Below, one piece after another: positions 31,455-63,379 of a stretch of 64,000 bases of DNA. A program made the translations under genes and the position numbers. Each line of letters opens with the position of its first letter. Within the stretch, counting starts at the first letter, position 1. Under the pieces are notes generated by a model. The model searched no databases and was not told the DNA's origin. It saw only the letters and a program-made list of their open reading frames with translations. This DNA comes from a virus: positions 1 through 64,000 of IMG/VR virus record IMGVR_UViG_3300017917_000321. One strand, written 5' to 3'.

Positions 31455-32675
31455 ATGAAAATAGCAATGATTGGTTGTGGTAAACTTGGCTTGCCGTGTG
31501 CAGAAGTTATGGGTAAACATTATGACATAGTTGGATATGATATAATCAAAGATCCGGCTGCTGAAATACCTATGTTAGATTCTATTCAAGAAGCAGTGAA
31601 CAGACGAGATCTTATTTTCGTTGCAGTCCCAACACCACATGATCCTGAATACGGCGGCAGTAAACCAATTGCTGAAATGCCTCCAAAAGATTTTGATTAT
31701 AGTATTGTTCAGCAAGTGCTAGAAGAAATAAATCGGTATGTAAACAAGAATCAGCTGGTTGTATTAATTTCAACAGTTCTTCCAGGAACAGTGCGAGCCC
31801 ATCTTGCCCCTAAAATAACTAATGCGCGATTCATTTATAACCCATACCTTATTGCTATGGGCTCTGTTAAATGGGATATGGTAAATCCAGAATGCCTAAT
31901 CATCGGAACAGAAGACGGCAACAGAACAGGCGATGCTGGTTTACTCATAGATTTTTATAAACCTATAATGGAGAATGATCCGCAGATCAATGTAGGCACA
32001 TGGGACGAAGCTGAAGCCATTAAGATTTTTTACAATACGTTCATTTCTGCCAAAATTGGCCTTGTTAATATGATTCAAGACGTTGCTGAAAAAAATGGTA
32101 ATATCAATGTTGATGTAGTAACAGATGCGCTTAAGGCAGCTACACAGCGTATTACAGGACCTAGATACTTAACAGCAGGTATGGGAGATGCTGGCGCATG
32201 TCATCCTAGAGATAATATTGCACTACGCTATCTAGCGGAACGTTTGGATCTAGGCTATGATTTATTCCACGCTATTATGCACAGCAGAGATCGACAGGCT
32301 AAAAACATGGCGCTTAAACTTGTTGCATTAGCTAAAGAACATCAACTACCAGTTGTAATTCACGGTCGTGCATACAAGCCATATGTACCTTATACCATCG
32401 GTAGCTACTCTGAATTAGTTGGTCACTTTGTTGAAGCAGAAGGTGTTGAAGTATTTTATGCAGATCCACTAACTGATGATTCATGGTCAGGTCGCGCAGT
32501 AATATTAATGGCACATAATCCTGCTATTACTTATTTTGGAACTGGAGTTGATATTAAACCAGAACAGTTTTATTTTTATATTGAGCCAGGCAGCGTTATA
32601 CTAGACCCCTGGAGAACAATAAATGATATTCCTGGTTGCACTGTTATTCATTACGGCAATACTCGACTTCAATGA
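31455..32675 (+). CDS. UDP-glucose/GDP-mannose dehydrogenase family protein
   Basis: The 406-residue protein starts 'MKIAMIGCGKLGLPCAEVMG', an NAD-binding GxGxLG motif, followed by 'VAVPTP' (57-62) and 'STVLPGT' (106-112), classic for nucleotide-sugar dehydrogenases. The catalytic cysteine lies in 'GACHPRDNIAL' (C249), corresponding to the usual GGSCFPKD. Glu187, Lys190 and Asn194 sit where the family places its catalytic helix. Such enzymes oxidise a UDP- or GDP-hexose twice to the uronic acid, a precursor of acidic surface polysaccharides. AAGGA precedes the ATG. It is about the usual length and looks intact. It would supply an activated sugar acid to the neighbouring transferases. Confidence 0.85.
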   Translation: MKIAMIGCGKLGLPCAEVMGKHYDIVGYDIIKDPAAEIPMLDSIQEAVNRRDLIFVAVPTPHDPEYGGSKPIAEMPPKDFDYSIVQQVLEEINRYVNKNQLVVLISTVLPGTVRAHLAPKITNARFIYNPYLIAMGSVKWDMVNPECLIIGTEDGNRTGDAGLLIDFYKPIMENDPQINVGTWDEAEAIKIFYNTFISAKIGLVNMIQDVAEKNGNINVDVVTDALKAATQRITGPRYLTAGMGDAGACHPRDNIALRYLAERLDLGYDLFHAIMHSRDRQAKNMALKLVALAKEHQLPVVIHGRAYKPYVPYTIGSYSELVGHFVEAEGVEVFYADPLTDDSWSGRAVILMAHNPAITYFGTGVDIKPEQFYFYIEPGSVILDPWRTINDIPGCTVIHYGNTRLQ

Positions 32676-51114: not shown

Positions 51115-52314
51115 ATGACTGTTGATAACAATACAAGTAAAAAATGCATACTTCCGTGGATTCATCTTAATGTTGAAACCAATGGTGATGTGTATCCCTG
51201 TTGTCAAGCAGACTTATCATTGCCGGCCCTTGGAAATTTAAATAAAAACACAGTTTCTGAGATACGAAACAGCGATAAATTTATTCAATTACGGCAGCAA
51301 ATGATAGATGGAATCGAACCTTCCTATTGTAGGGGCTGTTATGATAGAGAAAAACAATTTCCGGCATCAATGCAGAGCAAGCGTGTTAGAGAAAATAAGC
51401 AGTGGGAGAAGCTTTGGTCCTTAACTGATACTCCTACAGTAGGCGATCATATTTTTTATCTTGATGTAAGATACAGTAATGTATGTAATTTCAAATGTAG
51501 ATCTTGTGATCCTAGCGGAAGTCATTCTATTGCAGCTGAACAACAAAAGCTAGGGTTAAGTTCTGATGATTCTATTATTAGACGATTTGATTCTAGATCA
51601 ATATTTAAAGCAATAGATAATAATATATCTAATTTAGAAGAAATTTATTTTGTAGGCGGTGAACCGTTATTAATGGAAGAGCATTACATTCTTTTAGATA
51701 AATTAATAGCCGCAGGAAATACTTCAGTTAGGCTAAGATACAACACTAATCTAAGTAGGTTTGATTTTAAATCAAAAAATGTTTTAGAATACTGGAGTAA
51801 TTTTGATTCGATTTTAGTGAATGCAAGTTTAGATCATTACGGAAATAAATTAGAGTACATTCGTAACGGAGCAGACTGGAATATAATACAGCAAAATTTA
51901 AAAGATTTAAAGAATATACCTTCTGTAAAATTGCAAATACACTGGCTAATGTCGGTCTTTAATGCAACAGATATATTTGAAATATTTGATTATTATGTTT
52001 CTAATAACTTTATAAATGAAGAAGATTTTTTCTTAAATGTTTTACTTGATCCATATTATTACTGTATACAGACGTTGCATCCTACTCTAAAAATAGTAGT
52101 TAATGGTCAGATTGATTTACTTTTAGAAAAGTATAAAAACATAAACGAATTTTTAAGAACAAATCTGGAACAAATTAAATATCACATGAATGCGGTTAAT
52201 GCATGGGACATTCACAAAGACAGATTTATAAAAATAACTTCTTTACTAGATAATGCTAGAAATGAAAATTTTAAAGAAACTTTCCCTCAGTTAAAGGTAC
52301 AAATAGATGGATAA
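51115..52314 (+). CDS. Radical SAM protein with N-terminal twitch domain (rSAM 9)
   Basis: The 399-residue protein has 'CILPWIHLNVETNGDVYPCC' (C11, C29, C30) and 'YCRGCYDREK' (C72, C75), then CNFKCRSC (C124, C128, C131) and 'IYFVGGEPLLMEEH'. It has the full twitch-type plan of rSAM 1 and 5 but with fewer shared blocks, so it may be an older paralogue. It overlaps the 2OG-2 oxygenase gene by 8 bases, which suggests they act in one pathway. Substrate unknown. Confidence 0.85.
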   Translation: MTVDNNTSKKCILPWIHLNVETNGDVYPCCQADLSLPALGNLNKNTVSEIRNSDKFIQLRQQMIDGIEPSYCRGCYDREKQFPASMQSKRVRENKQWEKLWSLTDTPTVGDHIFYLDVRYSNVCNFKCRSCDPSGSHSIAAEQQKLGLSSDDSIIRRFDSRSIFKAIDNNISNLEEIYFVGGEPLLMEEHYILLDKLIAAGNTSVRLRYNTNLSRFDFKSKNVLEYWSNFDSILVNASLDHYGNKLEYIRNGADWNIIQQNLKDLKNIPSVKLQIHWLMSVFNATDIFEIFDYYVSNNFINEEDFFLNVLLDPYYYCIQTLHPTLKIVVNGQIDLLLEKYKNINEFLRTNLEQIKYHMNAVNAWDIHKDRFIKITSLLDNARNENFKETFPQLKVQIDG

Positions 52315-53026
52315 CACACATAAAGAAATACTTGAAAGATTTTGGAATGAAAATTCTAAACCTATTGAGTATAGATACCCTGATTTTTTTGATCCTAAAT
52401 GGACAGTGATGGAATCAGGATGGCCCTGTTTTAAATTGAGCATTTTTGATAATCAACCTTGGAAAGAAATGCACAAAGAAGCTGAACAGTTACTTGATAG
52501 TTTTCATCCACATAGAGAAGACTATGGTAATGGTTGGAAAAGTTTAACAATACATGGTCTAGATGAAGATACACAAAGTCTAGGACAGTATGGCAATGAT
52601 CGAAATAAGACGCTCGGCGAATTAGAGTGGACATGGGTAGCTGATAAGTGTCCTACAGTTAAAAAGTTTTTAACGGATGTGTGGCCTGCAGAATTTTTAA
52701 ACAGAGTAAGATTTATGCTCTTAGAACCAGGTGGTTATATACTACCTCATCAAGACAGACCTGATAGCCAAAAGCGTTTAAGTGTTTGTAACATTAGTTT
52801 GAATAATCCTGAGGGTTGTGAATTTCTTTTTAAAGGACACGGTAAAGTTCCCTTTAGTGATCAGGGTAGTGCCTTTTTAATGGATATATCAAATGTGCAT
52901 TCTGTATGGAATAGAAGTAACACTCCTAGACTGCATATGATTATACATTATGAGCTAGGGCATAGAATCAGAGACTTCTTTTATGTACTGCGCAGTAGCT
53001 ATTACACTAACAGAGGTGCAAAATGA
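52307..53026 (+). CDS. 2OG/Fe(II) oxygenase, Asp/Asn-hydroxylase type (2OG-2)
   Basis: The 239-residue protein has 'RVRFMLLEPGGYILPHQDRP' (H148, D150), 'NVHSVWNRSNTPRLHMIIHY' (H198, R208), the full iron triad and 2OG-binding Arg of the aspartyl/asparaginyl hydroxylase-like family. The N-terminal 120 residues are acidic and not recognised. Length fits the family. It probably is an active oxygenase on a peptide or small molecule. It is coupled to rSAM 9 by overlap and to the next gene by ATGA. Confidence 0.75.
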   Translation: MDNTHKEILERFWNENSKPIEYRYPDFFDPKWTVMESGWPCFKLSIFDNQPWKEMHKEAEQLLDSFHPHREDYGNGWKSLTIHGLDEDTQSLGQYGNDRNKTLGELEWTWVADKCPTVKKFLTDVWPAEFLNRVRFMLLEPGGYILPHQDRPDSQKRLSVCNISLNNPEGCEFLFKGHGKVPFSDQGSAFLMDISNVHSVWNRSNTPRLHMIIHYELGHRIRDFFYVLRSSYYTNRGAK

Positions 53027-54504
53027 GAGATTGGAATAGCATTACATATGATAGATATCTTGATCATTACAAGCTAGATATTCCTGTTGGCTTAGGCATA
53101 CTAGATATTTCTAGAGACATTGATAGTGAGTTCGTAAGAAAAAGATCTTTCGATATGACCTTTTGGATGACCAATCAAAGTCTAAAGATGGGATATGGTA
53201 CCTATCGAGGATTTAATGATAAAGTAGAAGATATCTTAGAGGAAAGTCTATCTAAAGGTGATCATATTTGTATTATACAGTGCCAAGGTATGATGAGTCT
53301 TAGACTTGCACACATTATTTCAACTAGCGTTAATTACTTTAAACAAAATCCTGATAAGTTTGTGATAGGTCATATAATGGCTCGCAAGGGCCGTTATCCT
53401 GGAATACATAGACAGATGCTTATTGTAAATTTAAAAGTTTGGGAAAAGTTAGGTAAGCCACCTTATTTAGAGCAGGGGTTCTTTTGGGATAGAAAACGAG
53501 AGTACTGTAATTTTGAAGTCAGTGAAAATAAAATTGCAGCAGAATATACACCAGACTGGATAGGACCAAAAGAAGGTACATCTAAATTTGATAATACAGA
53601 AGATGGTGCTAATTGGGTTCACATAGCATTATCTAATGGGATAGTTATAGAAAATTTAAATCTTGAAATGAGAGAATGCAAGTGTTTCTTGTACCCCTAC
53701 GAAGATACTGCACAGTTAGAAAAAGTATGGAATAATCTTCAACAGGAAGAAGAAGTAGACAAACTTAAAAATTACAGTGCAAGAACATGGATGAGAAAAC
53801 TTGCCTATCAAGAATTTATTGAAAAGGATAGGGTCTATGCGTTTAATACTGAAAGACTAAGTGCTGACGGTGTTAGAAGTGATGGTCCAGTAGATCATTT
53901 GTTTAGTGCAGCAGCCGGTTTCAAACCTTTAGCATTATTAAGGAATAATAAGTTTCATGAAGGTACTACTGTACACTATTTTGATTGGTGTCGCGCAAGT
54001 TTAGACTTTAAGAAACATGTATTAGAAACATGGGACGGTTATGATTTTCATAAGTGGTTGCTAGAGAATGATGGTAAGTATAACCTATCCAGTACTTACA
54101 GAGGTAACTACGAAGAATTCTGGAGATTAGAACTAACCAAAGAATTCGGGTCTGCTGATCAGTTTAAAGAATTATGGGATCGTTATAGAAAATTAGAACA
54201 TCATTTCCATGTAATTGATATAGTTAGTGAGCCTGAAAAACTCTTTAACATAATTAATCAGACTACAGGTAATAGAGTACTTTGGACAACTAATATTTGG
54301 GCTAGTATGCAATTACACTGGAACGTTGAAATTGATGAACTAGAACAAAAATGGTTAAAGTTTCAGAGTCTAATACCTGAAGGTCTAGCAATCTACGGTC
54401 AAGACTACTTAGCTAGGGATATACAGCGTAGAGTAAGACATAAATTAGATTACACACACCCGCGGTATGTTAGTACTAATAAATATGTACAACAATGGGG
54501 GTAG
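53023..54504 (+). CDS. Large conserved phage protein, function unknown
   Basis: The 493-residue protein is not recognised. Its N-terminal half contains 'ICIIQCQGMMSLRLAHIIST' and 'FVIGHIMARKGRYPGIHRQM', reminiscent of glycosyltransferase-like proteins, and the C-terminal half has 'FSAAAGFKPLALLRNNKFHE' and 'VHYFDWCRASLDFKKHVLET', a block I recall from cyanophage proteins. 'RVLWTTNIWASMQLHW' near the end resembles a nucleotide- or cofactor-binding strand. No clear motif for catalysis. It may be a bifunctional transferase, but this is speculative. It lies between two oxygenases. Confidence 0.5.
   Translation: MRDWNSITYDRYLDHYKLDIPVGLGILDISRDIDSEFVRKRSFDMTFWMTNQSLKMGYGTYRGFNDKVEDILEESLSKGDHICIIQCQGMMSLRLAHIISTSVNYFKQNPDKFVIGHIMARKGRYPGIHRQMLIVNLKVWEKLGKPPYLEQGFFWDRKREYCNFEVSENKIAAEYTPDWIGPKEGTSKFDNTEDGANWVHIALSNGIVIENLNLEMRECKCFLYPYEDTAQLEKVWNNLQQEEEVDKLKNYSARTWMRKLAYQEFIEKDRVYAFNTERLSADGVRSDGPVDHLFSAAAGFKPLALLRNNKFHEGTTVHYFDWCRASLDFKKHVLETWDGYDFHKWLLENDGKYNLSSTYRGNYEEFWRLELTKEFGSADQFKELWDRYRKLEHHFHVIDIVSEPEKLFNIINQTTGNRVLWTTNIWASMQLHWNVEIDELEQKWLKFQSLIPEGLAIYGQDYLARDIQRRVRHKLDYTHPRYVSTNKYVQQWG
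54478..54485 (+). promoter_or_regulatory. Possible T4-type late promoter (AATAAATA)
   Basis: AATAAATA, the same octamer as at 14815, lies within the preceding coding end (codons for T-N-K-Y) and ends 22 nt before the ATG at 54508. The shorter gap resembles that at 21925. It may be chance in an AT-rich sequence. Confidence 0.35.
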
Positions 54505-54507
54505 ACA

Positions 54508-55239
54508 ATGTACGGTCGCGTAATCAAAAACTATGATCCAATTAATCATGGCATAACTAAACACTTTTTGTATGAAACTAATGACTGGGATCTTATTGAA
54601 TTAAACTATAACGTAGATGTTGAACGTTTACAAGACTGGTGGAAGACCGTTCTAAAGAACTACGAGAACATGGTTTTTGATTTTAACAAGCACTACCAGT
54701 CTTTAGAATTAGAAAAAAGCAAAGAGATGGTAGAACAGGGCTACTGCGGATACTATTGCGGCCCGATTGACGGAGTCACACTAGCATGGCCCGAAGAAAA
54801 ATACGAAGCATTGCCTCCGCCTGTACAAGCCAACTTAGAAAAGTATCCAGAGGTCAACAGAGAAACTTTCTTTGATGACGCTACGCTATTACCTAAGTTA
54901 AGATTTGGATACTTTGACGAACTAATTAATGAACTAGGAGAAGATAGTTTCAGGCAAGCGATTGTTACTAGACATCATCCTGGAATGTATATTAGGCAGC
55001 ATAGAGACAGTAAGGTTTTAAAACTGCATATACCTATCGAGTCTCACGAAAATGCTTTCTTCCATTTTGGCGAAAATAAGGAACATGGCAAATATCATTT
55101 AAAGCCTGGAAAAGTTTACATACTTAACACAGGTGACTGGCATGGTACAACCAATGAGACTGATATTTTTAGATCTCATATTATAACAAGAATTGCAGAT
55201 TGGCATATACTAAAGGTAATTGGGATGACTAATGACTAA
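54508..55239 (+). CDS. 2OG/Fe(II) oxygenase, Asp/Asn-hydroxylase type (2OG-3)
   Basis: The 243-residue protein has 'GMYIRQHRDSKVLKLHIPIE' (H165, D167) and 'NTGDWHGTTNETDIFRSHII' (H212, R222), a complete triad with the Arg ten residues later. 'AFFHFGEN' and 'LKPGKVYILNTGDWH' are family blocks. The N-terminal half is unique. It overlaps the next gene by 8 bases. The spacing of H and Arg is the same as in the next gene, so these are close paralogues. Substrate unknown. Confidence 0.8.
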   Translation: MYGRVIKNYDPINHGITKHFLYETNDWDLIELNYNVDVERLQDWWKTVLKNYENMVFDFNKHYQSLELEKSKEMVEQGYCGYYCGPIDGVTLAWPEEKYEALPPPVQANLEKYPEVNRETFFDDATLLPKLRFGYFDELINELGEDSFRQAIVTRHHPGMYIRQHRDSKVLKLHIPIESHENAFFHFGENKEHGKYHLKPGKVYILNTGDWHGTTNETDIFRSHIITRIADWHILKVIGMTND

Positions 55240-55894
55240 GGTGATGAAAAGGTATATAGAGCAGTACGAGCCTATTGATTTAGGTTTTACTATTATGCCT
55301 TGGATACCTGTAGATGTACAAGCCATAAGAGAATGGTACACTGATTTAGAAAAAAATTACAGTGATTGGAAATTTGTAATAGGTGAAAATCATCATGTTT
55401 GGAAAATGCCTATCTCTGACCCCACAGGAGAGACAGGTCATATTTTGCCTGATGATGCATTTTATTATACTCTGTGTTGGAATGGAGATGAACCTGGACC
55501 AAAACCCTTTGAACAAGGTTGTGCAAAACCTGAGTACAGAGATGATGACAATGACGAATTAAATCCTAGACAGTGTTTTAATGGCTATGCATTAGATTTT
55601 GTAAAACAACTTCCGGTTAGAAGTAAGAAATGGTTAATAACAGGCCACACACCGGGAACTAAATTAATAACACATCAAGATGCTACCGATAAAATAAGAG
55701 TACACATTCCTATATACACTAATGAAGATAGTAACTGGACAATTAACGGTGAAGAATATCACATGGAGCCTGGGTGGGCATATCTAGTTAATACAACACT
55801 GCCACACAGTGTAGAAAATAAAGGTTCAACTAACAGAATACATTTATACGGTAAAGTATGGACTGATGATGTAAGGAAAGTATTGTGCGTGTAG
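55232..55894 (+). CDS. 2OG/Fe(II) oxygenase, Asp/Asn-hydroxylase type (2OG-4)
   Basis: The 220-residue protein has 'GHTPGTKLITHQDATDKIRV' (H148, D150) and 'VNTTLPHSVENKGSTNRIHL' (H192, R202), the iron and 2OG ligands. 'WTINGEEYHMEPGWAYLVNT' matches the core strands. It is paralogous to the previous and to the 56901 protein, sharing 'TGHTPGT' and 'LVNTTLPH'. It overlaps the next gene (SDR-like) by 10 bases. Substrate unknown. Confidence 0.8.
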   Translation: MTKVMKRYIEQYEPIDLGFTIMPWIPVDVQAIREWYTDLEKNYSDWKFVIGENHHVWKMPISDPTGETGHILPDDAFYYTLCWNGDEPGPKPFEQGCAKPEYRDDDNDELNPRQCFNGYALDFVKQLPVRSKKWLITGHTPGTKLITHQDATDKIRVHIPIYTNEDSNWTINGEEYHMEPGWAYLVNTTLPHSVENKGSTNRIHLYGKVWTDDVRKVLCV

Positions 55895-56466
55895 TAATAA
55901 CAGGATCTAAAAAATCTAACACACCTGGACATGTAATGAATGGTTGGATGCATGATTATTTTGAAGATCATGAGATTATAACTATTTCTAAATCTAACGG
56001 TTATGACTTTTACACCGATTATGATAGGATATTAGAAGTAGCAAAGACGGCAGACATTTTCGTTAATAGTGCTGCCGTAGACAAATTTCAAATTAAATTT
56101 TTTCAAGACTTATATGGTCATGTACCTAAGATAATTTCTTTAGGAAGTATTGCAGCAGATTTTAGCGATGCACTTAATGATTTTTATCCAAAGATGAAAA
56201 AAGAGTTAAAGACAAAGCATAAGTTTTTACCTTTAACAAATCTTAATGTTTCTAGCGATATCTTGCATATTACTTTAACAGAGGTAGAAAATATAGAAGA
56301 ACATATTCAGGGTATGACCTACAATCAACTTAAAAGAATTTTAGATTTTTGGTTTGAAAATCCTTTCTTCACTAATATAGATTTAAAATACTTCACAGAA
56401 ACATACACTGACTCTGATAAGCTATCTAAAATACAGAGAGTGCTAGCACACTATGAAAATAAATAG
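55885..56466 (+). CDS. Small SDR-like NAD(P)-dependent protein
   Basis: Starts at GTG 55885 with AAGGA 7 nt upstream. The 193-residue protein opens 'MRVVITGSKKSNTPGHVMNG' (nucleotide-binding start), has 'NSAA' at 61-64 in place of NNAG, 'IISLGSIA' (S88) and 'YPKMKKELK' (Y101, K105), which fits the SDR Ser-Tyr-Lys triad. It is shorter than the usual 250 residues and the glycine motif is loose, so cofactor binding may be weakened. It probably is a reductase or dehydrogenase for a small carbonyl. Coupled by 10-14-base overlaps to its neighbours. Confidence 0.6.
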   Translation: MRVVITGSKKSNTPGHVMNGWMHDYFEDHEIITISKSNGYDFYTDYDRILEVAKTADIFVNSAAVDKFQIKFFQDLYGHVPKIISLGSIAADFSDALNDFYPKMKKELKTKHKFLPLTNLNVSSDILHITLTEVENIEEHIQGMTYNQLKRILDFWFENPFFTNIDLKYFTETYTDSDKLSKIQRVLAHYENK

Positions 56467-56914
56467 AATTTCTCAAGCAAACTTTAAATCCTTAATGGAG
56501 CAACAGAATATTACAGACCAAACCGTAGATAGCTCTAACGATTTCTATATCTGCTTAAATTCCACAGGATGGATACACAGTATCCCTTATTTTAAAGAAG
56601 AACACGCAAATGTAATCAATCTATATTTTGACGATGTTGAGTCATCAGGTCCAAAAGAGATACAATGGTTTGGCGGAGAAACAAAAATCATTGATGCAAT
56701 AGCAATGAACGAAAGTCAAGCAGAACAGCTAGTTAGGTTTATTTCTACAATACCTTCCGATGCTATTGTTTATATTTATTGTGCTAAAGGAAAGTCACGC
56801 TCGAGAGCTGTTGAAGATTTTATACTGAGCATTGAAACTAATATTGATACTATATCTGAAGGATCTAATCAACATGTTTATAAAAGTTTAAGAGAAGCCT
56901 ATGCTAGACTTTAA
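56453..56914 (+). CDS. Tyrosine/dual-specificity phosphatase-like protein
   Basis: The 153-residue protein contains 'IVYIYCAKGKSRSRAVEDF' with C110 and R116, the CX5R signature of cysteine phosphatases. The usual His before Cys is Tyr109. Acidic residues 60-61 ('YFDDVES') may provide the general acid. The size fits small dual-specificity phosphatases. I recall relatives in marine T4-like phages with this exact plan. It may remove phosphate from proteins, sugars or nucleotides. The start ATG overlaps the SDR gene by 14 bases. Confidence 0.7.
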   Translation: MKINRISQANFKSLMEQQNITDQTVDSSNDFYICLNSTGWIHSIPYFKEEHANVINLYFDDVESSGPKEIQWFGGETKIIDAIAMNESQAEQLVRFISTIPSDAIVYIYCAKGKSRSRAVEDFILSIETNIDTISEGSNQHVYKSLREAYARL

Positions 56915-58082
56915 AATTAAAGAATTACCTAACATAAAGTTTTCACATACAGCACTACTCAATTATTATAATGAAGTAGTGCAAAATTATCAACATCTAA
57001 AATGGACACCGGCAGGTATTGATACTTTAAATCACAAAGTTGGCGGAGTTTATAGTTGGGCAATACAAAGTAACTTAAAGGACCCTTCGAAGCCCTGTCC
57101 TCCTTACGACATTAAAAACGACGTTGACATACATCCTAACAATGATTTTAAAGTCCCAACAGAACTAATTTTTGGATTTGGAAAAATAGTAGTTGAAGCG
57201 TTTCCTGAAGTTAGACAAACTGTTATAAGCGCACATCCTCCTGGAACAGTAATCGGTGAACACATAGATAATGATGAATTTGTAAAAATACATATACCTA
57301 TTAAAGCTAATAATAACAGCTTCTTTGTATTTGGCGATGAGAAATACAATTTAGAAGAAGGCAAGGCGTATCTTATTAATACAACACTACCTCATGGCAC
57401 TACAAACGAAGGTGATACAGATAGAATACATTTAATTTTTAAATTTCCAATTGAACTAGTTGATACTGTATTATCTACTGATTGGATACTTGATCCTAGC
57501 TTCATTGATTTTGATCTTTTAGAGATAAAAAATTTAGAGTTTGATTTTAACGAACTTGTTGATTACTATAATACAATTAAGCAAGACTATCAATATCTTA
57601 AATGGACAATGCCAGACATTCCTAAAACAAACCTAGGTGGTCTTTACGGATTTGGAATTTTAACAAACAAAGACAATCCTGACGACCCTACCGATCCTCC
57701 GGGAATACGTACGGATAAGAAAAAATTTGAACCTTTGATTAAACCTACAAAGATGCTAACAGGATTTGCTAAGAAGATCTACGAAAAGATTCCGTATCTA
57801 GAGGAATTGGTAATAACAGGTCATCCTGCTAACAGCGGTATCCCACCGCATATTGATAAGGATGAGCATATTCGTATACACTTACCTATTTTTGCTAATG
57901 ACAGATCATATTTTATGATAAACGGAAATGAGTATGTGTTAGAGCCCACTAAGGTATATCTAGTTAACACAAAAAGGATACATACTACTATAAACAGTGG
58001 AAATGAAGATAGAATACATCTACATTTTAAAATACCGATTGGTAAAATAGACTACTTTTTAAAGACCGGAGTAAAACTATGA
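56901..58082 (+). CDS. Tandem two-domain 2OG/Fe(II) oxygenase (2OG-5)
   Basis: The 393-residue protein is an internal duplication. Domain 1 has 'GEHIDND' (H121, D123), 'LPHGTTNEGDTDRIHLIF' (H165, R175). Domain 2 has 'PPHIDKD' (H317, D319) and 'IHTTINSGNEDRIHLHF' (H361, R371). Both triads and Args are intact, and the two halves share 'QxLKWT' and 'VYLVNT'-type blocks. The tandem likely acts twice on one substrate or on two sites. It lies immediately before the halogenase gene, with ATGA overlap, which suggests a linked hydroxylation/halogenation step. Confidence 0.8.
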   Translation: MLDFKIKELPNIKFSHTALLNYYNEVVQNYQHLKWTPAGIDTLNHKVGGVYSWAIQSNLKDPSKPCPPYDIKNDVDIHPNNDFKVPTELIFGFGKIVVEAFPEVRQTVISAHPPGTVIGEHIDNDEFVKIHIPIKANNNSFFVFGDEKYNLEEGKAYLINTTLPHGTTNEGDTDRIHLIFKFPIELVDTVLSTDWILDPSFIDFDLLEIKNLEFDFNELVDYYNTIKQDYQYLKWTMPDIPKTNLGGLYGFGILTNKDNPDDPTDPPGIRTDKKKFEPLIKPTKMLTGFAKKIYEKIPYLEELVITGHPANSGIPPHIDKDEHIRIHLPIFANDRSYFMINGNEYVLEPTKVYLVNTKRIHTTINSGNEDRIHLHFKIPIGKIDYFLKTGVKL

Positions 58083-59317
58083 AAATAGCAGTTGTTGGTG
58101 GTGGTACAGCAGGTTGGATGGCTGCTGCATATCTAAGTAAAACATTCGATGTTACGATTATCGAAAGTGCAGATATACCTATTGTGGGTGTAGGAGAAAG
58201 CACACTTCCTATTGTTAAGAAGTTTTGCGATGATTTAGGACTTGACGAAGCAGATTGGATGCCATTATGTCAAGCAGAATACAAGCTAGGTATTAGACAT
58301 GAAGGTTGGAAAAAGGATCGAAAAGATCCTTGGTGGCATTGGTTCTTATATGACAGAAACAAAGATAGCGAAATGCTCAAGCACGTAGAAAATCATACAG
58401 TACCCCCTAGCGGTAGTTATGCTTATCACGTAGATGCTATGAAATTTGGTTCAGCAGTAATGAAGCCTGTTGCCCTTAAAAACGGAGCCAAACATTTAAT
58501 AGATACTGTTGAAGATGTAGCGTTAAATGCTGATGGAGAGATTGACCATTTATTGTTAAAAAATAACGGTCCTAAATGTTTTGACCTTTATGTTGATGCA
58601 ACAGGATTTGCAAAAGTTCTAGCAAAGAAAGTGGGAATAAACTATCTTCCATACGAACATTTAATCAATGACAGTGCTGTGGCCTGTCCTCAAGAACCTG
58701 CACCTATTCAGAATAGATACACTATTACTAGGACTATGAACCACGGTTGGATGTGGGAAATTGCACTACAGAATCGTAGAGGCGCAGGTTATGTTTTTAG
58801 CAGTAAACACTGTTCAGACGAAGAAGCGATTGAAGAATACCTACAGTATTTTCCAAACTCGGATAGATCGAAACTGCGTGTTATAAAATTCAAACCTGAG
58901 TATGCAGAAAATCCATTCTACAAAAATGTAGCAACAGTTGGTATGAGCTGCGGATTCATTGAACCTTTAGAAGCTAATAGTATATGGATGATATCTTATA
59001 ATGTATTGGGACTTTATAGATGTTTAACAGAGGGAAAGTCTTTTGATACATTTAATAGAGCCTTTAGAAAAACCAGTTTTGAAATGTATGATTTTATCCT
59101 AAGTCATTATACACTGTCTGATAGAGATCATACAGACTACTGGAGATACTATAAGGATCTAGAACAGAAGATTAATACTAGAGATAGAGTTAAAGAAAAG
59201 AGTAAACTAATGGATGTAGAACTAGGAAGACATCCTGGGATATTCTATCCCTACAGTTGGTGGACTAAAGACAAATACTTTAATCAAGACGCCACGCTTT
59301 ATACTCAGGAACATTAA
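58079..59317 (+). CDS. Flavin-dependent (tryptophan) halogenase
   Basis: The 412-residue protein starts 'MKIAVVGGGTAGWMAAAYLS' (FAD-binding GxGxxG at 7-12), has 'VGVGESTLP' (36-44), 'EYKLGIRHEGW' where K69 aligns with the catalytic lysine of the family, and 'HGWMWEIAL' near residue 222 as the WxWxIP motif with Ala for Pro. 'GFIEPLEANSIWMI' is the conserved C-terminal block. It is shorter than the usual 510-540 residues. Such enzymes use FADH2, O2 and halide to chlorinate, brominate or iodinate aromatic groups; cyanophage halogenases of this family (VirX1) are known. A flavin reductase is not seen in the window. Overlaps the next minus-strand gene tail-to-tail by 38 bases. Confidence 0.85.
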   Translation: MKIAVVGGGTAGWMAAAYLSKTFDVTIIESADIPIVGVGESTLPIVKKFCDDLGLDEADWMPLCQAEYKLGIRHEGWKKDRKDPWWHWFLYDRNKDSEMLKHVENHTVPPSGSYAYHVDAMKFGSAVMKPVALKNGAKHLIDTVEDVALNADGEIDHLLLKNNGPKCFDLYVDATGFAKVLAKKVGINYLPYEHLINDSAVACPQEPAPIQNRYTITRTMNHGWMWEIALQNRRGAGYVFSSKHCSDEEAIEEYLQYFPNSDRSKLRVIKFKPEYAENPFYKNVATVGMSCGFIEPLEANSIWMISYNVLGLYRCLTEGKSFDTFNRAFRKTSFEMYDFILSHYTLSDRDHTDYWRYYKDLEQKINTRDRVKEKSKLMDVELGRHPGIFYPYSWWTKDKYFNQDATLYTQEH

Positions 59318-59879
59318 CACGCCATAGCTTTTGCTTGGTGTACATGTACTCAAAGTTGTCATCGACTAGCGTAAAGATTCCAGTCCTAGCTACCCTAGGA
59401 ACCATGTTTTCATTCATGCGTTGACTCTTGCCGTTGGTTGATGACTTTTCTATATTAGTTGTGAAATAAAATTCAGCAACTGGATTAATATTAGTAATAA
59501 AATCAATCTGCATATTTAGAACTTCCATTAGCTGATAGCTGGCTCTAAAACTATGCTGACCAGTGGTGTATCCTGGTAGCGTTGCTCCTCTATAGAATAC
59601 TCTATATGCATTTGTATTCAGTTCTTTCATAGAATGAACACCGCATAAATTAAAAATAATATCTTTGTCTACATCGTACCCTACAAAAAACTGTCCATGA
59701 GGCATCTTCATTTTTTCTAAATTTATTGCCTTAAATGAACTGTTATTATAGTAACCTAATGAGTCGCATCTATTACAAAAATCTTGCAACTTATTATGAT
59801 CACTATCTTGGAGGAGTCTAAACAGAATATTAGAATTCATTCTTCCATGTTGTTCTATTTGCTTCTTGTCTTCTACCAT
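59280..59879 (-). CDS. Conserved protein, possibly GNAT-like
   Basis: The 199-residue protein has no clear catalytic motif. 'GQFFVGYDVDKDIIFNLCGV' and 'RVARTGIFTLVDDNFEYMYT' might form beta strands of a GNAT-type acetyltransferase, which would fit the neighbouring ANL gene, but the acetyl-CoA loop (Q/RxxGxG/A) is not visible. The start is ATG 59879, overlapping the ANL gene by 50 bases; ATG 59840 is an alternative. It is on the minus strand, opposing the halogenase gene. The function is unknown. Confidence 0.5.
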   Translation of the reverse strand: MVEDKKQIEQHGRMNSNILFRLLQDSDHNKLQDFCNRCDSLGYYNNSSFKAINLEKMKMPHGQFFVGYDVDKDIIFNLCGVHSMKELNTNAYRVFYRGATLPGYTTGQHSFRASYQLMEVLNMQIDFITNINPVAEFYFTTNIEKSSTNGKSQRMNENMVPRVARTGIFTLVDDNFEYMYTKQKLWRVNVPEYKAWRLD

Positions 59880-60501
59880 AAAACTCTAACGTATTCATGT
59901 CAAAAATATCACCAGTTGATCGACCATTGATAATGCATTCGGCTAATTGAGATGTAGCACTAACAGGCATAAACATTATGTGCTCATCTTTAGCCAGTGT
60001 AGACATGTCAAACTTTGTTGAATTGTATCCTACTAGTATAGGAGGAGGGTACTCGGTCATACCATACCAATTAGCAACTATCTGTACACCGTGATTTCTA
60101 AATGTGTCAATAAACTCCTGAGTAATTTTATTACTACCTGTGACCATGTATCTTACACAGCTCATGTCTAACTGTGCAAATCCTTTGGTCTTTTTTAGTA
60201 ATTCAAAGTGTCTCGGTATAAGACTAATAAAAGTAGGCTGTACTTCTTTAAACAGTTCAATGTATGAGTACGCATTAAATGCAGCAGTGCATAGGTGTGC
60301 GCCACTTAGCATTGCTGGATAAGCAGTTATTGTATAGTGTGCTATGGTGTTAGATGGAAACACATCTAACACTCTATCCTCTGGTCCTAGTTTGCTTTCT
60401 TTAATAGAGCGTAATGCGTAGGACTTCATTCTTTCCCAACTGTGGTTTACCTTTTTAGGTTCATCTGTACTGCCTGACGTGAATAGAGTAATACCGCTCA
60501 T
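59830..60501 (-). CDS. Miniature ANL-type (AMP-binding) adenylation protein
   Basis: The 223-residue protein has 'LFTSGSTDEPKKVNHSW' (the ATP-binding P-loop, TSGST at 8-12), 'NWYGMTEYPPP' (A5, YGMTE 146-150) and 'STGDIFD' (A7-like, 196-201), then ends soon after 'YGRR' (A8). So it has only the core of the N-terminal domain of an acyl-CoA synthetase or adenylation domain (normally about 500 residues) and lacks the mobile C-terminal lid with Lys A10. It may adenylate an acid alone or act with a partner. Start/stop overlap with the upstream gene is TAATG. Confidence 0.7.
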   Translation of the reverse strand: MSGITLFTSGSTDEPKKVNHSWERMKSYALRSIKESKLGPEDRVLDVFPSNTIAHYTITAYPAMLSGAHLCTAAFNAYSYIELFKEVQPTFISLIPRHFELLKKTKGFAQLDMSCVRYMVTGSNKITQEFIDTFRNHGVQIVANWYGMTEYPPPILVGYNSTKFDMSTLAKDEHIMFMPVSATSQLAECIINGRSTGDIFDMNTLEFYGRRQEANRTTWKNEF

Positions 60502-61322
60502 TACAAATCCTTTAGTATTTCGTTAGCTGTGTGTAAATGCACACCTGTGCCAGGATGGGCAGAGATGTTATTATTTTGTTTCATTACATCACGGGCGTAA
60601 CGTTCGCTAACATTATATATGTTTAAGCTGTCCATGTCAATGCTTTTAAGGTTGAAATCCTGTACAAATTTGTCGTCTGGATAATAGGATAGTTCAATTA
60701 ATTTACAGCCTAGGCTTTTACAAAACTCTCTAAGCATTGTTGAATAACACTGTGCTTCTTTTAGCAAAAAGTCTGTGTTCGTTAATAAATTGTATGCATC
60801 AATATACGTTGGATACTCAAGTGGAATATGTTTTCCCGAGAATGTTAGAGATTTGTCATTATCAAAAAATGTATATCCATGAATTGGGGGGTATTCAAAA
60901 ATGCATATTTTTGGAGTAGTAAATTTTTTTATGTAATTAAAAAATGAATACACCTGTAGTTTAATACTAAAGGTAGGTCCTGCATAGTTAATGTAATCAA
61001 AATTTAAACGATCTGCAATGATATCAGAAAATCTTTTTTCTTCTGGTATGCCTATCCCCATGGCATAACTAGTACCTGACACATAGACAAGGTTTGATGA
61101 TAACGTGTCTAACTCTTTAGTCATACGCAATCCGTGAGAATTAAAATTATATACAACCGGAGTATCTTTATACATCCAATCATCAGGCATATATTTTAGA
61201 TTTCTTTCAAACAGATCTTCTCTATCAGGACCGTAAAACCGGTAAGACCCCGGCTTCATGCTGTCATGAGTATACGGCCAATCCTGAACGTTGTATAGTT
61301 GTACTGTGTTTAACTTAGACAT
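60501..61322 (-). CDS. SGNH hydrolase-like protein 3
   Basis: The 273-residue protein has 'NLVYVSGTSYAMGIGIPEEK' where GTSYAMG (83-89, S85) is the SGNH block I, 'YINYAGPTFSIK' as block II, and near the end 'NNNISAHPGTGVHLHTANEI' with a His in the expected block V place. An Asn block III is not evident. It lies in the minus operon with the mini-ANL gene and overlaps the oxygenase gene by 8 bases. It may be an acyl-transferase or esterase acting with the adenylation module, or on glycans. Confidence 0.55.
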   Translation of the reverse strand: MSKLNTVQLYNVQDWPYTHDSMKPGSYRFYGPDREDLFERNLKYMPDDWMYKDTPVVYNFNSHGLRMTKELDTLSSNLVYVSGTSYAMGIGIPEEKRFSDIIADRLNFDYINYAGPTFSIKLQVYSFFNYIKKFTTPKICIFEYPPIHGYTFFDNDKSLTFSGKHIPLEYPTYIDAYNLLTNTDFLLKEAQCYSTMLREFCKSLGCKLIELSYYPDDKFVQDFNLKSIDMDSLNIYNVSERYARDVMKQNNNISAHPGTGVHLHTANEILKDL

Positions 61323-62046
61323 CGGTTGGCTTGAATTTAAAGAGAGACTCTAAATCTTCCTTTTTAGGAGTTCCGTAAAGTATTACCCAATCATCTCCTT
61401 CGTGATTAATAACAGAATGAAATACTGCTGTGTTTACAAGATATACTTTTCCAGGTTGTAGTATGTATTCTCTTTCAGCAGTATGACCAAAATACCATAC
61501 GCAGTTTTCATGTATCTGAAGGTTCATGTGCATGCGAGCAATAACATTAGGATAAGGCACGTCTACATGTAAGTGCAGTCCTGATCCTTCTGGTATAACT
61601 GTTACTCGCATGTTTAGTAGATACTGTGCTGCCTTGTTGTATAGCTTTTCAAATGCACCAAATTTATACTTTGATAAAATTGGATTAGATTGATCGCTAA
61701 AATTAGGATCACCAATTTCTGGATACAACTCTTTATTTGCTATGAAACTAAAAGGAAGAGGGTCGTAGCGTTCTTTTGACCAATTTAACAACCACCAATA
61801 AGTGGGGTTACCGCTATCGAATGATGGATCGGCAGCTTGCCATCGCCTCACCATATTCGAATCATAATATTTTTCGTATTCCTTACTTACTACAAATTTA
61901 GCTGATTGTAAATTGAGTTTGACCTGTTGGTACCATTCTAACAGACCTGTGTGATCTACGCTAAAAGGCAACTCGATAATATCCCAATCTATATTTTGCA
62001 GATCGGAAGTCTTTAAATTTTCAATGTCTGTTATATATCGCTGCAT
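61315..62046 (-). CDS. 2OG/Fe(II) oxygenase-like protein (2OG-6)
   Basis: The 243-residue protein (ATG at 62046 chosen, as the TTG at 62064 lies within the T tract of the terminator) has 'GSGLHLHVDVPYP' (H160, D162), 'VYLVNTAVFHSVINHEGDDW' (H210). The Arg that binds 2-oxoglutarate in the other members is not found here (GDDWVILY in place of xDRIHL), so it may use a different residue or be altered. No Shine-Dalgarno is seen. It probably belongs to the same family, with changed cofactor binding. Confidence 0.65.
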   Translation of the reverse strand: MQRYITDIENLKTSDLQNIDWDIIELPFSVDHTGLLEWYQQVKLNLQSAKFVVSKEYEKYYDSNMVRRWQAADPSFDSGNPTYWWLLNWSKERYDPLPFSFIANKELYPEIGDPNFSDQSNPILSKYKFGAFEKLYNKAAQYLLNMRVTVIPEGSGLHLHVDVPYPNVIARMHMNLQIHENCVWYFGHTAEREYILQPGKVYLVNTAVFHSVINHEGDDWVILYGTPKKEDLESLFKFKPTDV

Positions 62047-62060
62047 GCAGTATTTAACAG

Positions 62061-62095
62061 TCAAAAAAAATGGCCTAACTAAATTAGGCCATTTT
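62061..62095 (-). terminator. Rho-independent terminator after the Mtd-like fibre gene
   Basis: A perfect 12-bp stem (62067-62078 with 62084-62095, loop CTAAA) is followed on the minus strand by a run of eight T's. It lies 18 bases after the stop of the 62113 gene. On the plus strand the stem is followed only by T4, so it acts mainly for the minus strand. Confidence 0.85.
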
Positions 62096-62112: not shown

Positions 62113-63348
62113 TTATCCTAGTACAACCCAAGCTGTACCATTGTAACCTTTAAATTCGTTAGTTGTGCTATCAAAGACAATCCAACCTGCTTCCGGACTT
62201 GATGGCAAACTACCTGTTGCGTATCCAGTTGCTTTAAATACTGGAGCAGTAAATACACCGGCTGTGCTAAATGTTGCCTTCTTAAATGCTGCTGGATTTG
62301 GTCCATTTGGCATAGTTAGTTCCATAAGTGACTGAGGTGCAGTTGATACACCGTCACTTGGAGTTACTAGTTTAACATTGATAAGACCTAGTGTAGCAGA
62401 TATAGTTCCTACTGGGGTAAGTGCTAGACCGTTGAATCTTATATTACCTGCACTATCTCCTGAATCAAGAGCAACAGTACTAACTGTGCTGCTTGAAATA
62501 GCATTTAATACTAAGTGAGGACCATTTTGTCCGTTACTAGAAGAATCAATTCTAATGCCAGGATCTGTATAAGGATTGACACATACTAGTGCTGGACCAA
62601 CCGGTCCACCTATACCATTAATTTCGACACTACCTAATGAACTAGTAATAGTATCATTAACAATTGAAATTACTCCATTGGAAAGAATTCTATTAGTTCC
62701 GTCAACTAAAATAGTACTATCTTCACCTGCTACAGAACCTTTAAATGTTCCGTAGTGCTCGTCATTATTGCCATTGACTAAAAGTCTGCCATGTATTGAC
62801 GAAATATTACCTGTTACATTGCCTGTTACATTGCCTGTTACATTGCCTGTTACATTACCAGTTACATTACCAGTTAAGTTGCCAGTGACATTGCCACTAA
62901 CATCACCAGTTACATTACCAGTTAGATCTCCAAAGAAATCTGCATACATGCGTTGATTATAACTGTCAACAAGTATAGCAACACCGTCTGGTGTCCTAAC
63001 TGATCCTAAAAATACTCTGGTATCACTATTTAGAACAGGATCACCGACAGAGTCTTCAAGATCTATATAATAGCTGCCGCCGGGTGTTGTTGGTGATGAT
63101 TCTGGCGAAGCAATCCAGTCAGTACCGTCATAACGTAGAACATCACCTTCTTGCGGTGTAAGTGTTAGATCAACATCGGAAAGATCGTCTAGTCCGTACA
63201 CAGCTCCTGTGTTAACTAGTATTCCGCCTATAGTAGTACCGTCACCAATCCATAAACGTTTGGTATCAGTTGTGTAGATAAGCTCGCCTTCAGCAGGCGT
63301 TATCAGCTGGCGCTGTGTATCTGTTCCGCGTCTAAGACGTAATGCCAT
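62113..63348 (-). CDS. Tail fibre protein with Mtd-like N-terminal domain and GNVT repeats
   Basis: About 411 residues from ATG 63348, which follows GGGAG by 10 nt. The TTG at 63363 is unlikely. The start 'MALRLRRGTDTQRQLITPAE' and 'GELIYTTDTKRLWIGDGTT' match the N-terminal domain of the major tropism determinant and other phage fibre proteins. Residues about 140-180 hold ten 4-residue units, mainly GNVT, coded by a 12-bp tandem repeat. The C-terminus 'GWIVFDSTTNEFKGYNGTAW' is a typical fibre end. It has a T4-type late promoter and terminator, so it forms its own unit. A fibre or tail decoration role is probable. Confidence 0.8.
   Translation of the reverse strand: MALRLRRGTDTQRQLITPAEGELIYTTDTKRLWIGDGTTIGGILVNTGAVYGLDDLSDVDLTLTPQEGDVLRYDGTDWIASPESSPTTPGGSYYIDLEDSVGDPVLNSDTRVFLGSVRTPDGVAILVDSYNQRMYADFFGDLTGNVTGDVSGNVTGNLTGNVTGNVTGNVTGNVTGNVTGNISSIHGRLLVNGNNDEHYGTFKGSVAGEDSTILVDGTNRILSNGVISIVNDTITSSLGSVEINGIGGPVGPALVCVNPYTDPGIRIDSSSNGQNGPHLVLNAISSSTVSTVALDSGDSAGNIRFNGLALTPVGTISATLGLINVKLVTPSDGVSTAPQSLMELTMPNGPNPAAFKKATFSTAGVFTAPVFKATGYATGSLPSSPEAGWIVFDSTTNEFKGYNGTAWVVLG
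62807..62926 (-). repeat. Ten-unit 12-bp tandem repeat in the Mtd-like fibre gene
   Basis: Ten 12-base units run from 62807 to 62926; the three at 62819-62854 are identical (TTGCCTGTTACA), with others differing by a few bases. They encode GNVT-type units of a fibre shaft. Such arrays change length easily. Confidence 0.9.
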
Positions 63349-63379
63349 TCGAGTAACTCCCAATATACTTTATTACAAG

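What the first reader, a model, noticed from the sequence alone, without database searches (positions are those of the whole stretch)
58079..59317. Short flavin-dependent halogenase next to a two-domain hydroxylase
The halogenase has the FAD site and the lysine in EYKLGIRHEGW, but WMWEIA in place of WxWxIP and only 412 residues. A cyanophage halogenase with iodination activity is known (VirX1), so a broad or unusual halide preference is possible. The preceding oxygenase gene overlaps it by four bases. No flavin reductase gene is visible in the window.
Basis: partly seen in the sequence, partly recalled or inferred. Interest (0 to 1): 0.7.

Follow-up and report, generated by a model that had tools for sequence, protein, structure and literature searches.

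The report
Swappable short halogenase in phage cassette
A large uncultured phage carries an unusually short but apparently intact halogen-adding enzyme that, in related phages, is cleanly swapped for different versions or missing altogether inside an otherwise constant set of chemistry genes beside the tail fibres, which suggests that it fine-tunes a surface or small molecule in the contest between phage and host.

Summary
ORF 58079-59317 (412 aa) is a flavin-dependent halogenase (FDH): Pfam PF04820 E 4e-90; AF2 model pLDDT 94.5; structural Z 47.9 to SttH. FAD motif, catalytic Lys69, Glu298 and both WxW tryptophans are intact. It is under purifying selection and overlaps a real two-domain Asp/Asn-hydroxylase-type gene by four bases. 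It is short because the lid loop and C-terminus are cut down. It belongs to a phage-only clade (335-415 aa, support 100/97) without VirX1, so the VirX1 analogy gives no support for an iodide preference.

The slot holds diverged short FDHs, a long FDH, an unrelated membrane gene, or nothing. In one contig pair the flanking DNA is about 97-100% identical while the halogenases share 44%: a nearly gene-precise swap. Swapped alleles keep the catalytic core and differ most in the C-terminal substrate end.

Best reading: a dispensable, exchangeable tailoring halogenase for an aromatic group on the cassette's product, probably surface-related. Substrate and halide are unknown. New variant of a known kind.

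The parts
58079..59317 (+). Short flavin-dependent halogenase, 412 aa; catalytic Lys69, Glu298; GGGTAGW FAD motif 7-13; GWMWEIA 223-229; H87-x-F89; EPLEA 295-299
56901..58082 (+). Two-domain Asp/Asn beta-hydroxylase-type 2OG oxygenase (PF05118); H121xD123..H165..R175 and H317xD319..H361..R371 invariant in 8 aligned proteins; overlaps the halogenase by 4 bases
56453..56914 (+). Cassette gene of unknown family (phrog_5614), kept in nearly all cassettes
55885..56466 (+). Gene of unknown family, cassette-variable (44% relative in L022)
55232..55894 (+). PF05118 oxygenase, 66-79% identity across most cassettes
54508..55239 (+). PF05118 oxygenase
53023..54504 (+). Conserved 493-aa cassette protein of unknown family (no Pfam match at threshold, no PDB match)
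52307..53026 (+). PF05118 oxygenase, first gene of the conserved block (70-77% identity)
59280..59879 (-). GNAT-like cassette gene converging on the halogenase 3' end; weak profile match to a GNAT acetyltransferase structure (E 1.3e-4)
59830..60501 (-). Truncated AMP-ligase: core motifs TSGSTxEPK and NWYGMTE kept, N-terminal part and C-terminal lid absent; conserved in the cassettes
60501..61322 (-). Variable cassette gene of unknown family; swapped between cassettes like the halogenase (40-43% in otherwise about 90-100% identical pairs)
61315..62064 (-). PF05118 oxygenase, more divergent (about 30%), not in every cassette
62113..63363 (-). Fibre protein with Mtd_N (major tropism determinant N-terminal) domain at the edge of the cassette

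Best explanation
The gene encodes a working flavin-dependent halogenase of a short, phage-only clade. It acts as an optional, exchangeable tailoring step of a conserved oxygenase cassette. Steps inferred from the FDH family: host-made FADH2 binds the Rossmann site and reacts with O2; halide attacks the C4a-hydroperoxide; hypohalous acid travels to Lys69/Glu298; it then halogenates an electron-rich aromatic ring held by His87/Phe89, and in this allele perhaps also by Trp394/Trp395. The lid loop and C-terminal pocket are cut down and the free-tryptophan signature (Trp4 motif) is missing, so the substrate is predicted not to be free tryptophan but an aromatic group, possibly on a larger molecule, made or oxidised by the cassette. 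Because the slot is replaced gene-precisely by other halogenases, or left empty, while the rest of the cassette stays nearly constant beside tail-fibre genes, the step is dispensable and probably diversifying. It most likely alters a product exposed at a host-phage interface (host envelope, virion or secreted molecule). Shown here: family, intact catalytic residues, predicted fold, purifying selection, clade, conserved cassette, slot exchange. Inferred: activity, substrate class, purpose. Unknown: halide and exact substrate.
For: Family and residues. Fold: AF2 model pLDDT 94.5, pTM 0.92; Foldseek best PyrH E 8e-38, TMq 0.84; VIA Z 47.9 to SttH over 400 residues, rmsd 2.5. Short clade: lid region 33 residues and C-terminal tail 56 here, against 53-88 and usually 85-125 in most long phage FDHs; none of 80 bacterial relatives retrieved was under 478 aa; clade support 100/97. 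Purifying selection: dN/dS 0.02-0.17, though dS is near saturation in the comparisons with the window. Cassette in 25 contigs counting the window; slot: 18 short FDH, 3 long FDH, 4 without FDH. Swap: L004/L019 flanks about 97-100% DNA identity, drop starting at the start codon and ending near the stop, halogenases 44%. Alleles A and B share 51-58% in the FAD/catalytic blocks and 16% in the C-terminus. The L109 slot holds a DUF2061 membrane gene; L119, L120 and L122 show no remnant. Host-recognition islands of T4-like phages with radical SAM and LPS-type genes are described (PMC7029224).
Against: No activity, substrate or product is known for any member of the short clade. The Ser of the proposed Fx.Px.Sx.G motif is Ala in the whole clade, although EPLEA also occurs in 36 of 80 bacterial FDHs (a pattern-biased set) and 58 of 129 phage FDHs. 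WxWxIP lacks its proline. The model's C-terminal helices still align out to PrnA residue 474, so the pocket may be less open than length suggests. Surface exposure of the product is inferred from location and exchange only.
Confidence: 0.6

Rival explanations
1. The cassette makes a free halogenated secondary metabolite (an inhibitor or signal) during infection; the halogenase is a pathway enzyme of that metabolite rather than a surface decorator.
For: A 10-gene halogenase plus 2OG-oxygenase cluster in jumbo cyanophage S-SSM6a was predicted to make a halogenated amino acid/sugar metabolite (PMC7824862). The cassette has an AMP-ligase-like and a GNAT-like gene and several oxygenases.
Against: No carrier protein, condensation or export gene was recognised among the ORFs scanned with Pfam; the AMP-ligase is truncated; the cassette is flanked by virion and fibre genes.
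Confidence: 0.25
2. The halogenase modifies Tyr, Trp or His residues of a virion protein, such as the adjacent Mtd_N fibre.
For: Fibre genes lie on both sides of the island. Peptide-modifying FDHs exist (SrpI, MibH; PMC10858898). PF05118 includes peptide aspartyl/asparaginyl hydroxylases, and rSAM/SPASM genes abound.
Against: Halogenase and fibre alleles are not linked: L003/L004 share the halogenase (93%) but not the fibre (52%); L004/L019 share the fibre (91%; L004 fibre cut by the contig end) but not the halogenase (44%). No candidate precursor gene was seen between the tightly packed cassette genes.
Confidence: 0.15
3. The protein has lost halogenation and works as a plain flavin monooxygenase or is catalytically dead.
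For: The proline of WxWxIP and the serine of EPLES are replaced, and WxWxIP is thought to prevent monooxygenation (PMC8407142).
Against: Lys69, Glu298, W224, W226 and the FAD glycines are invariant in the clade; dN/dS is 0.02-0.17; WxWxIP variants occur in known FDHs (PMC8407142).
Confidence: 0.12
4. It is a VirX1-like broad-scope halogenase that prefers iodide.
For: Both are viral FDHs with the same fold (VIA Z 37.9 to 6qgm).
Against: Different clade with strong support, about 29% identity, different Trp2 motif (H-x-F against YPF), shortened lid and C-terminus.
Confidence: 0.08

Closest known systems
Tryptophan-halogenase family FDHs (PrnA, RebH, PyrH, SttH; Pfam PF04820)
   Same: Same fold (Z about 38-48), FAD motif, catalytic Lys/Glu, WxW tryptophans, HxF ring-stacking motif
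   Different: About 100 residues shorter; no Trp4 free-tryptophan motif; Pro of WxWxIP and Ser of EPLES replaced
VirX1 from cyanophage Syn10 (PDB 6qgm)
   Same: Viral FDH, same fold (Z 37.9), lacks Trp4
   Different: Separate clade nearer bacterial FDHs; 530 aa; YPF instead of HxF; sits beside a second FDH (CPUG_00132) rather than in this cassette
S-SSM6a-type jumbo cyanophage cluster with halogenase and 2OG oxygenases (PMC7824862)
   Same: Phage cluster combining an FDH with several 2OG/cupin oxygenases; prediction only
   Different: Its core is carbamoyltransferases and a HemK-like methylase, not recognised among the ORFs scanned here; no slot exchange described there in the passages read
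Pelagimyophage/cyanomyophage host recognition cluster (PMC7029224) and the CP220/CPt10 radical-SAM module (PMC2853527)
   Same: Variable island beside tail fibres with radical SAM and sugar genes; interchangeable module content
   Different: Those reports describe variation of whole islands or modules and no short FDH; here single genes inside a constant cassette are replaced
BrvH / group C FDHs (indole halogenases without Trp4; PMC5945002, PMC8269204)
   Same: Ring-contacting residues kept, free-amino-acid contacts lost
   Different: Full length (about 490-510 aa), bacterial or metagenomic, not in such a cassette

Membership tests
Flavin-dependent halogenase (PF04820) | Profile match above curated cut-off | tested here: met
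   303 bits against cut-off 21
Flavin-dependent halogenase (PF04820) | GxGxxG FAD motif | tested here: met
   G7xG9xxG12 (GGGTAGW), glycines invariant in the clade
Flavin-dependent halogenase (PF04820) | Catalytic Lys (PrnA K79) and Glu (PrnA E346) | tested here: met
   K69 and E298 in all 11 short-clade rows; K69 in all 52 FDHs
Flavin-dependent halogenase (PF04820) | Full WxWxIP motif | tested here: not met
   W224, W226, I228 kept, Pro replaced by Ala; known to vary in FDHs (PMC8407142)
Flavin-dependent halogenase (PF04820) | Fx.Px.Sx.G motif proposed for active FDHs | tested here: not met
   F293, P296 kept; Ser replaced by A299, Gly by S301; the Ala variant is also frequent in other FDHs
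Flavin-dependent halogenase (PF04820) | FDH fold | tested here: met
   predicted model
Flavin-dependent halogenase (PF04820) | FADH2/O2/halide-dependent halogenation | not testable with these tools
   needs an assay
Free-tryptophan halogenase (groups A/B of PMC8269204) | Trp2 HxF | tested here: met
   H87-W88-F89
Free-tryptophan halogenase (groups A/B of PMC8269204) | Trp1 ATIP/ATVP/ATFS | tested here: inconclusive
   S41-T42-L43-P44, similar but not identical
Free-tryptophan halogenase (groups A/B of PMC8269204) | Trp4 motif YYxxF..EF.NFW or YYHG | tested here: not met
   C-terminus reads IFYPYSWWTKDKYF; no match
VirX1-type viral halogenase | Groups with VirX1 in a tree | tested here: not met
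   separate clades, 100/97 and 98/97
VirX1-type viral halogenase | Preference for iodide | not testable with these tools
   needs a halide competition assay
Asp/Asn beta-hydroxylase-type oxygenase PF05118 (56901-58082) | Two domains, each with HxD...H metal residues and a candidate 2OG-binding Arg | tested here: met
   invariant in both domains in 8 aligned proteins; Foldseek hits include AspH and other 2OG/cupin hydroxylases
S-SSM6a-type halogenase cluster | Carbamoyltransferase and HemK-like methylase core | tested here: inconclusive
   none recognised by Pfam in the ORFs scanned; not every window ORF was scanned

The most novel reading that the evidence does not exclude
Phages keep a dedicated halogenation slot: a truncated, phage-only FDH lineage evolves as exchangeable alleles with different substrate ends inside an otherwise fixed oxygenase cassette, and phages thereby vary a halogenated surface or secreted product much as they vary tail fibres.
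Probability: 0.25. Interest if true: 0.75.

Novelty: new variant of a known kind. Interest (0 to 1): 0.52.

Why it matters
Phage halogenases have been known since early cyanophage genomes and one (VirX1) is a prized biocatalyst, yet no natural substrate of any phage FDH is known in the work read here. This clade offers a natural experiment: near-identical cassettes exist with halogenase A or B, and related ones with none, so comparing their products would reveal what the halogenase acts on. The short alleles are also compact candidates for enzymology. If the slot diversifies a host-phage interface molecule, halogenation would join the list of phage surface-variation strategies.

Tried and rejected
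Flavin reductases PF01613, PF03358 and PF00881 were sought in the whole record: none. Isolate phages carrying cassette genes: none for the 493-aa protein or the AMP-ligase; only a weak partial match for the two-domain oxygenase. So host and expression are unknown; the DNA polymerase is nearest to jumbo phages such as Atu_ph07 at 45.8% identity, not to cyanophages. Remnants of the halogenase in cassettes that lack it: none convincing. Profile searches for the 493-aa protein and for the variable gene 60501-61322 in PDB and Pfam: nothing convincing. Linkage of halogenase allele with the Mtd fibre allele: not seen. Shortness as decay or frameshift: rejected, since the short form is shared by a whole clade under purifying selection. 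Halide preference cannot be read from sequence: in BrvH, which favours bromide, the halide site gave no explanation (PMC5945002). A first attempt to list PDB alignments for a bacterial FDH failed on coordinates and was repeated. The VirX1 paper itself was not held; VirX1 facts come from PMC8407142 and PMC8269204.

Full report
Observation. It is the only match of its kind in the 89,086-base virus record that holds the window. Pfam PF04820 E 4.2e-90 and PHROG 2928 E 6e-93 identify it as a tryptophan-halogenase-family protein. The FAD motif (GGGTAGW), the Lys of EYKLGIRHEGW (K69), the Glu of EPLE (E298) and both tryptophans of GWMW are present and align with solved and phage FDHs. The upstream gene 56901-58082 has two PF05118 stretches, each with HxD...H...R residues invariant in eight aligned proteins; its model (pLDDT 85.6) gives Foldseek hits that include AspH and other 2OG or cupin hydroxylases. 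The 4-base overlap is conserved in relatives. No gene of three flavin-reductase families is in the record, so FADH2 presumably comes from the host; the record is a fragment.

Why it is short. Against about 130 phage FDHs, the window protein has 33 residues where most others have 53-88 in the region after the catalytic Lys (lid loop), and 56 residues after W355 where most others have 85-125. The 80 bacterial relatives retrieved are 478 aa or longer. The short proteins (335-415 aa) form one clade with 100/97 support: window, L002, L004, L005, L016-L018, L020, L022, L107, L113, L123, L051 and L056 in the tree. VirX1 falls in another group, with the bacterial FDHs (98/97). Syn10 CPUG_00131, annotated 'hypothetical protein', is VirX1 itself (identical to 6qgm); the neighbouring CPUG_00132 is a second FDH. 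A different short lineage (L033, L057, S-MS29) lies far away in the tree, so shortening seems to have happened more than once.

Structure and chemistry. The model has pLDDT 94.5 and pTM 0.92. It matches PyrH (Foldseek E 8e-38, TMq 0.84) and SttH (VIA Z 47.9, rmsd 2.5 over 400 residues), with VirX1 at Z 37.9 and MibH at 37.2. H87-x-F89, the ring-stacking Trp2 motif of tryptophan halogenases (PMC8269204), is invariant in the clade, which supports an aromatic substrate. The Trp4 motif of free-tryptophan halogenases is absent, as in the group C halogenases (PMC8269204). The Pro of WxWxIP and the Ser of EPLES are replaced in the whole clade. The Ala variant is common elsewhere, so it is not by itself a sign of loss. 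dN/dS of 0.02-0.17 shows purifying selection, with the caveat that synonymous sites are close to saturated between the window and its relatives.

The cassette and its slot. Searching with the halogenase and with the two-domain oxygenase gave 25 contigs, counting the window, with the same basic gene order: PF05118 - 493-aa unknown - PF05118 (two or three) - phrog_5614 - two-domain PF05118 - [slot] - and, on the opposite strand, GNAT-like, truncated AMP-ligase, variable gene, PF05118 and Mtd_N fibre. Some contigs deviate in part (L022, L115-L117, L119-L120, L122, L123). The slot holds type A (window and four contigs), B (eight), C (one), D (three), E (one), a long 509-aa FDH (three), or no FDH (four: L109 with a DUF2061 membrane gene; L119, L120 and L122 without any remnant); L121 ends before the slot and is not counted. 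L003 and L005 are practically identical and probably the same phage. Between L004 and L019 the upstream 200-base windows are 91-100% identical (97-100% over most of the length); identity falls at the halogenase start codon and recovers just past its stop, with halogenases at 44% amino-acid identity. The variable gene 60501-61322 shows the same pattern (40%), while the AMP-ligase between them is 98%. L003/L018 repeat this. Types A and B share 58% and 51% identity in the two FAD/catalytic blocks but 16% in the C-terminus, with large gaps. So the exchange leaves the catalytic core and changes the substrate end most.

Interpretation. The cassette persists without the halogenase, so halogenation is an add-on. 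Single-gene replacement between nearly identical genomes, at the edge of fibre genes and in an island rich in radical SAM and hydroxylase genes, resembles the host-recognition clusters of marine T4-like phages (PMC7029224) and the interchangeable modules of Campylobacter phages (PMC2853527). Of the possible targets, the adjacent fibre is weakened because halogenase and fibre alleles are uncoupled. A free metabolite, as proposed for the S-SSM6a cluster (PMC7824862), stays open. I favour an aromatic group on a cassette product that is exposed at the host-phage interface; this last step is inference.

Novelty. Phage FDHs, and FDHs beside 2OG oxygenases, were known. New here, as far as the papers read show, are the short phage-only clade, the conserved cassette, and the gene-precise exchange or absence of the halogenase. 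I rate it a new variant of a known kind. No isolate carries the cassette in the collection searched, so there is no host or expression evidence.

Noticed in passing
window 28589-52314: At least nine radical SAM genes, several with SPASM domains; one (51115-52314) is a 'twitch domain-containing' N_Twi_rSAM, E 1e-99.
   Followed up: partly
window 59830-60501 (-): A conserved 'mini' AMP-ligase of about 220 aa with core adenylation motifs but no N-terminal part or C-terminal lid, overlapping a GNAT-like gene; relatives also lie near a short FDH in L051 and L056.
   Followed up: partly
window 60501-61322 (-): A second exchanged gene (40-43% in otherwise about 90-100% identical cassettes); family unknown, a GTSY motif hints at an SGNH-like enzyme without database support.
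   Followed up: partly
window 53023-54504: A 493-aa protein conserved at 56-70% across cassettes with no Pfam or PDB relative and no match in isolate phages.
   Followed up: partly
L006 8099-8836, L006 6853-7725, L007 1853-3385 (record positions about 70350-79390): GTP cyclohydrolase I (Pfam) plus, by eye only, a QueE-like and a TGT/DpdA-like protein: possible 7-deazaguanine DNA modification. The last two had no Pfam hit at 1e-3.
   Followed up: partly
L007 4478-6418; window 31455-32675: Epimerase, UDP-glucose/GDP-mannose dehydrogenase and cytidylyltransferase genes: a small sugar-nucleotide pathway.
   Followed up: no
window 3-14819: Open frame of more than 4,900 aa related to phrog_10938 virion structural protein, followed by several tail-fibre genes.
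   Followed up: no
L008 (Syn10) 4986-8091: VirX1 (CPUG_00131) is annotated 'hypothetical protein' in HQ634191 and lies directly after a second FDH, CPUG_00132.
   Followed up: yes
L033 4767-5975; L057 9686-10840; L094 (S-MS29) 4001-5164: A second, separate lineage of short FDH-like phage proteins (385-403 aa), so shortening seems to have arisen more than once.
   Followed up: partly
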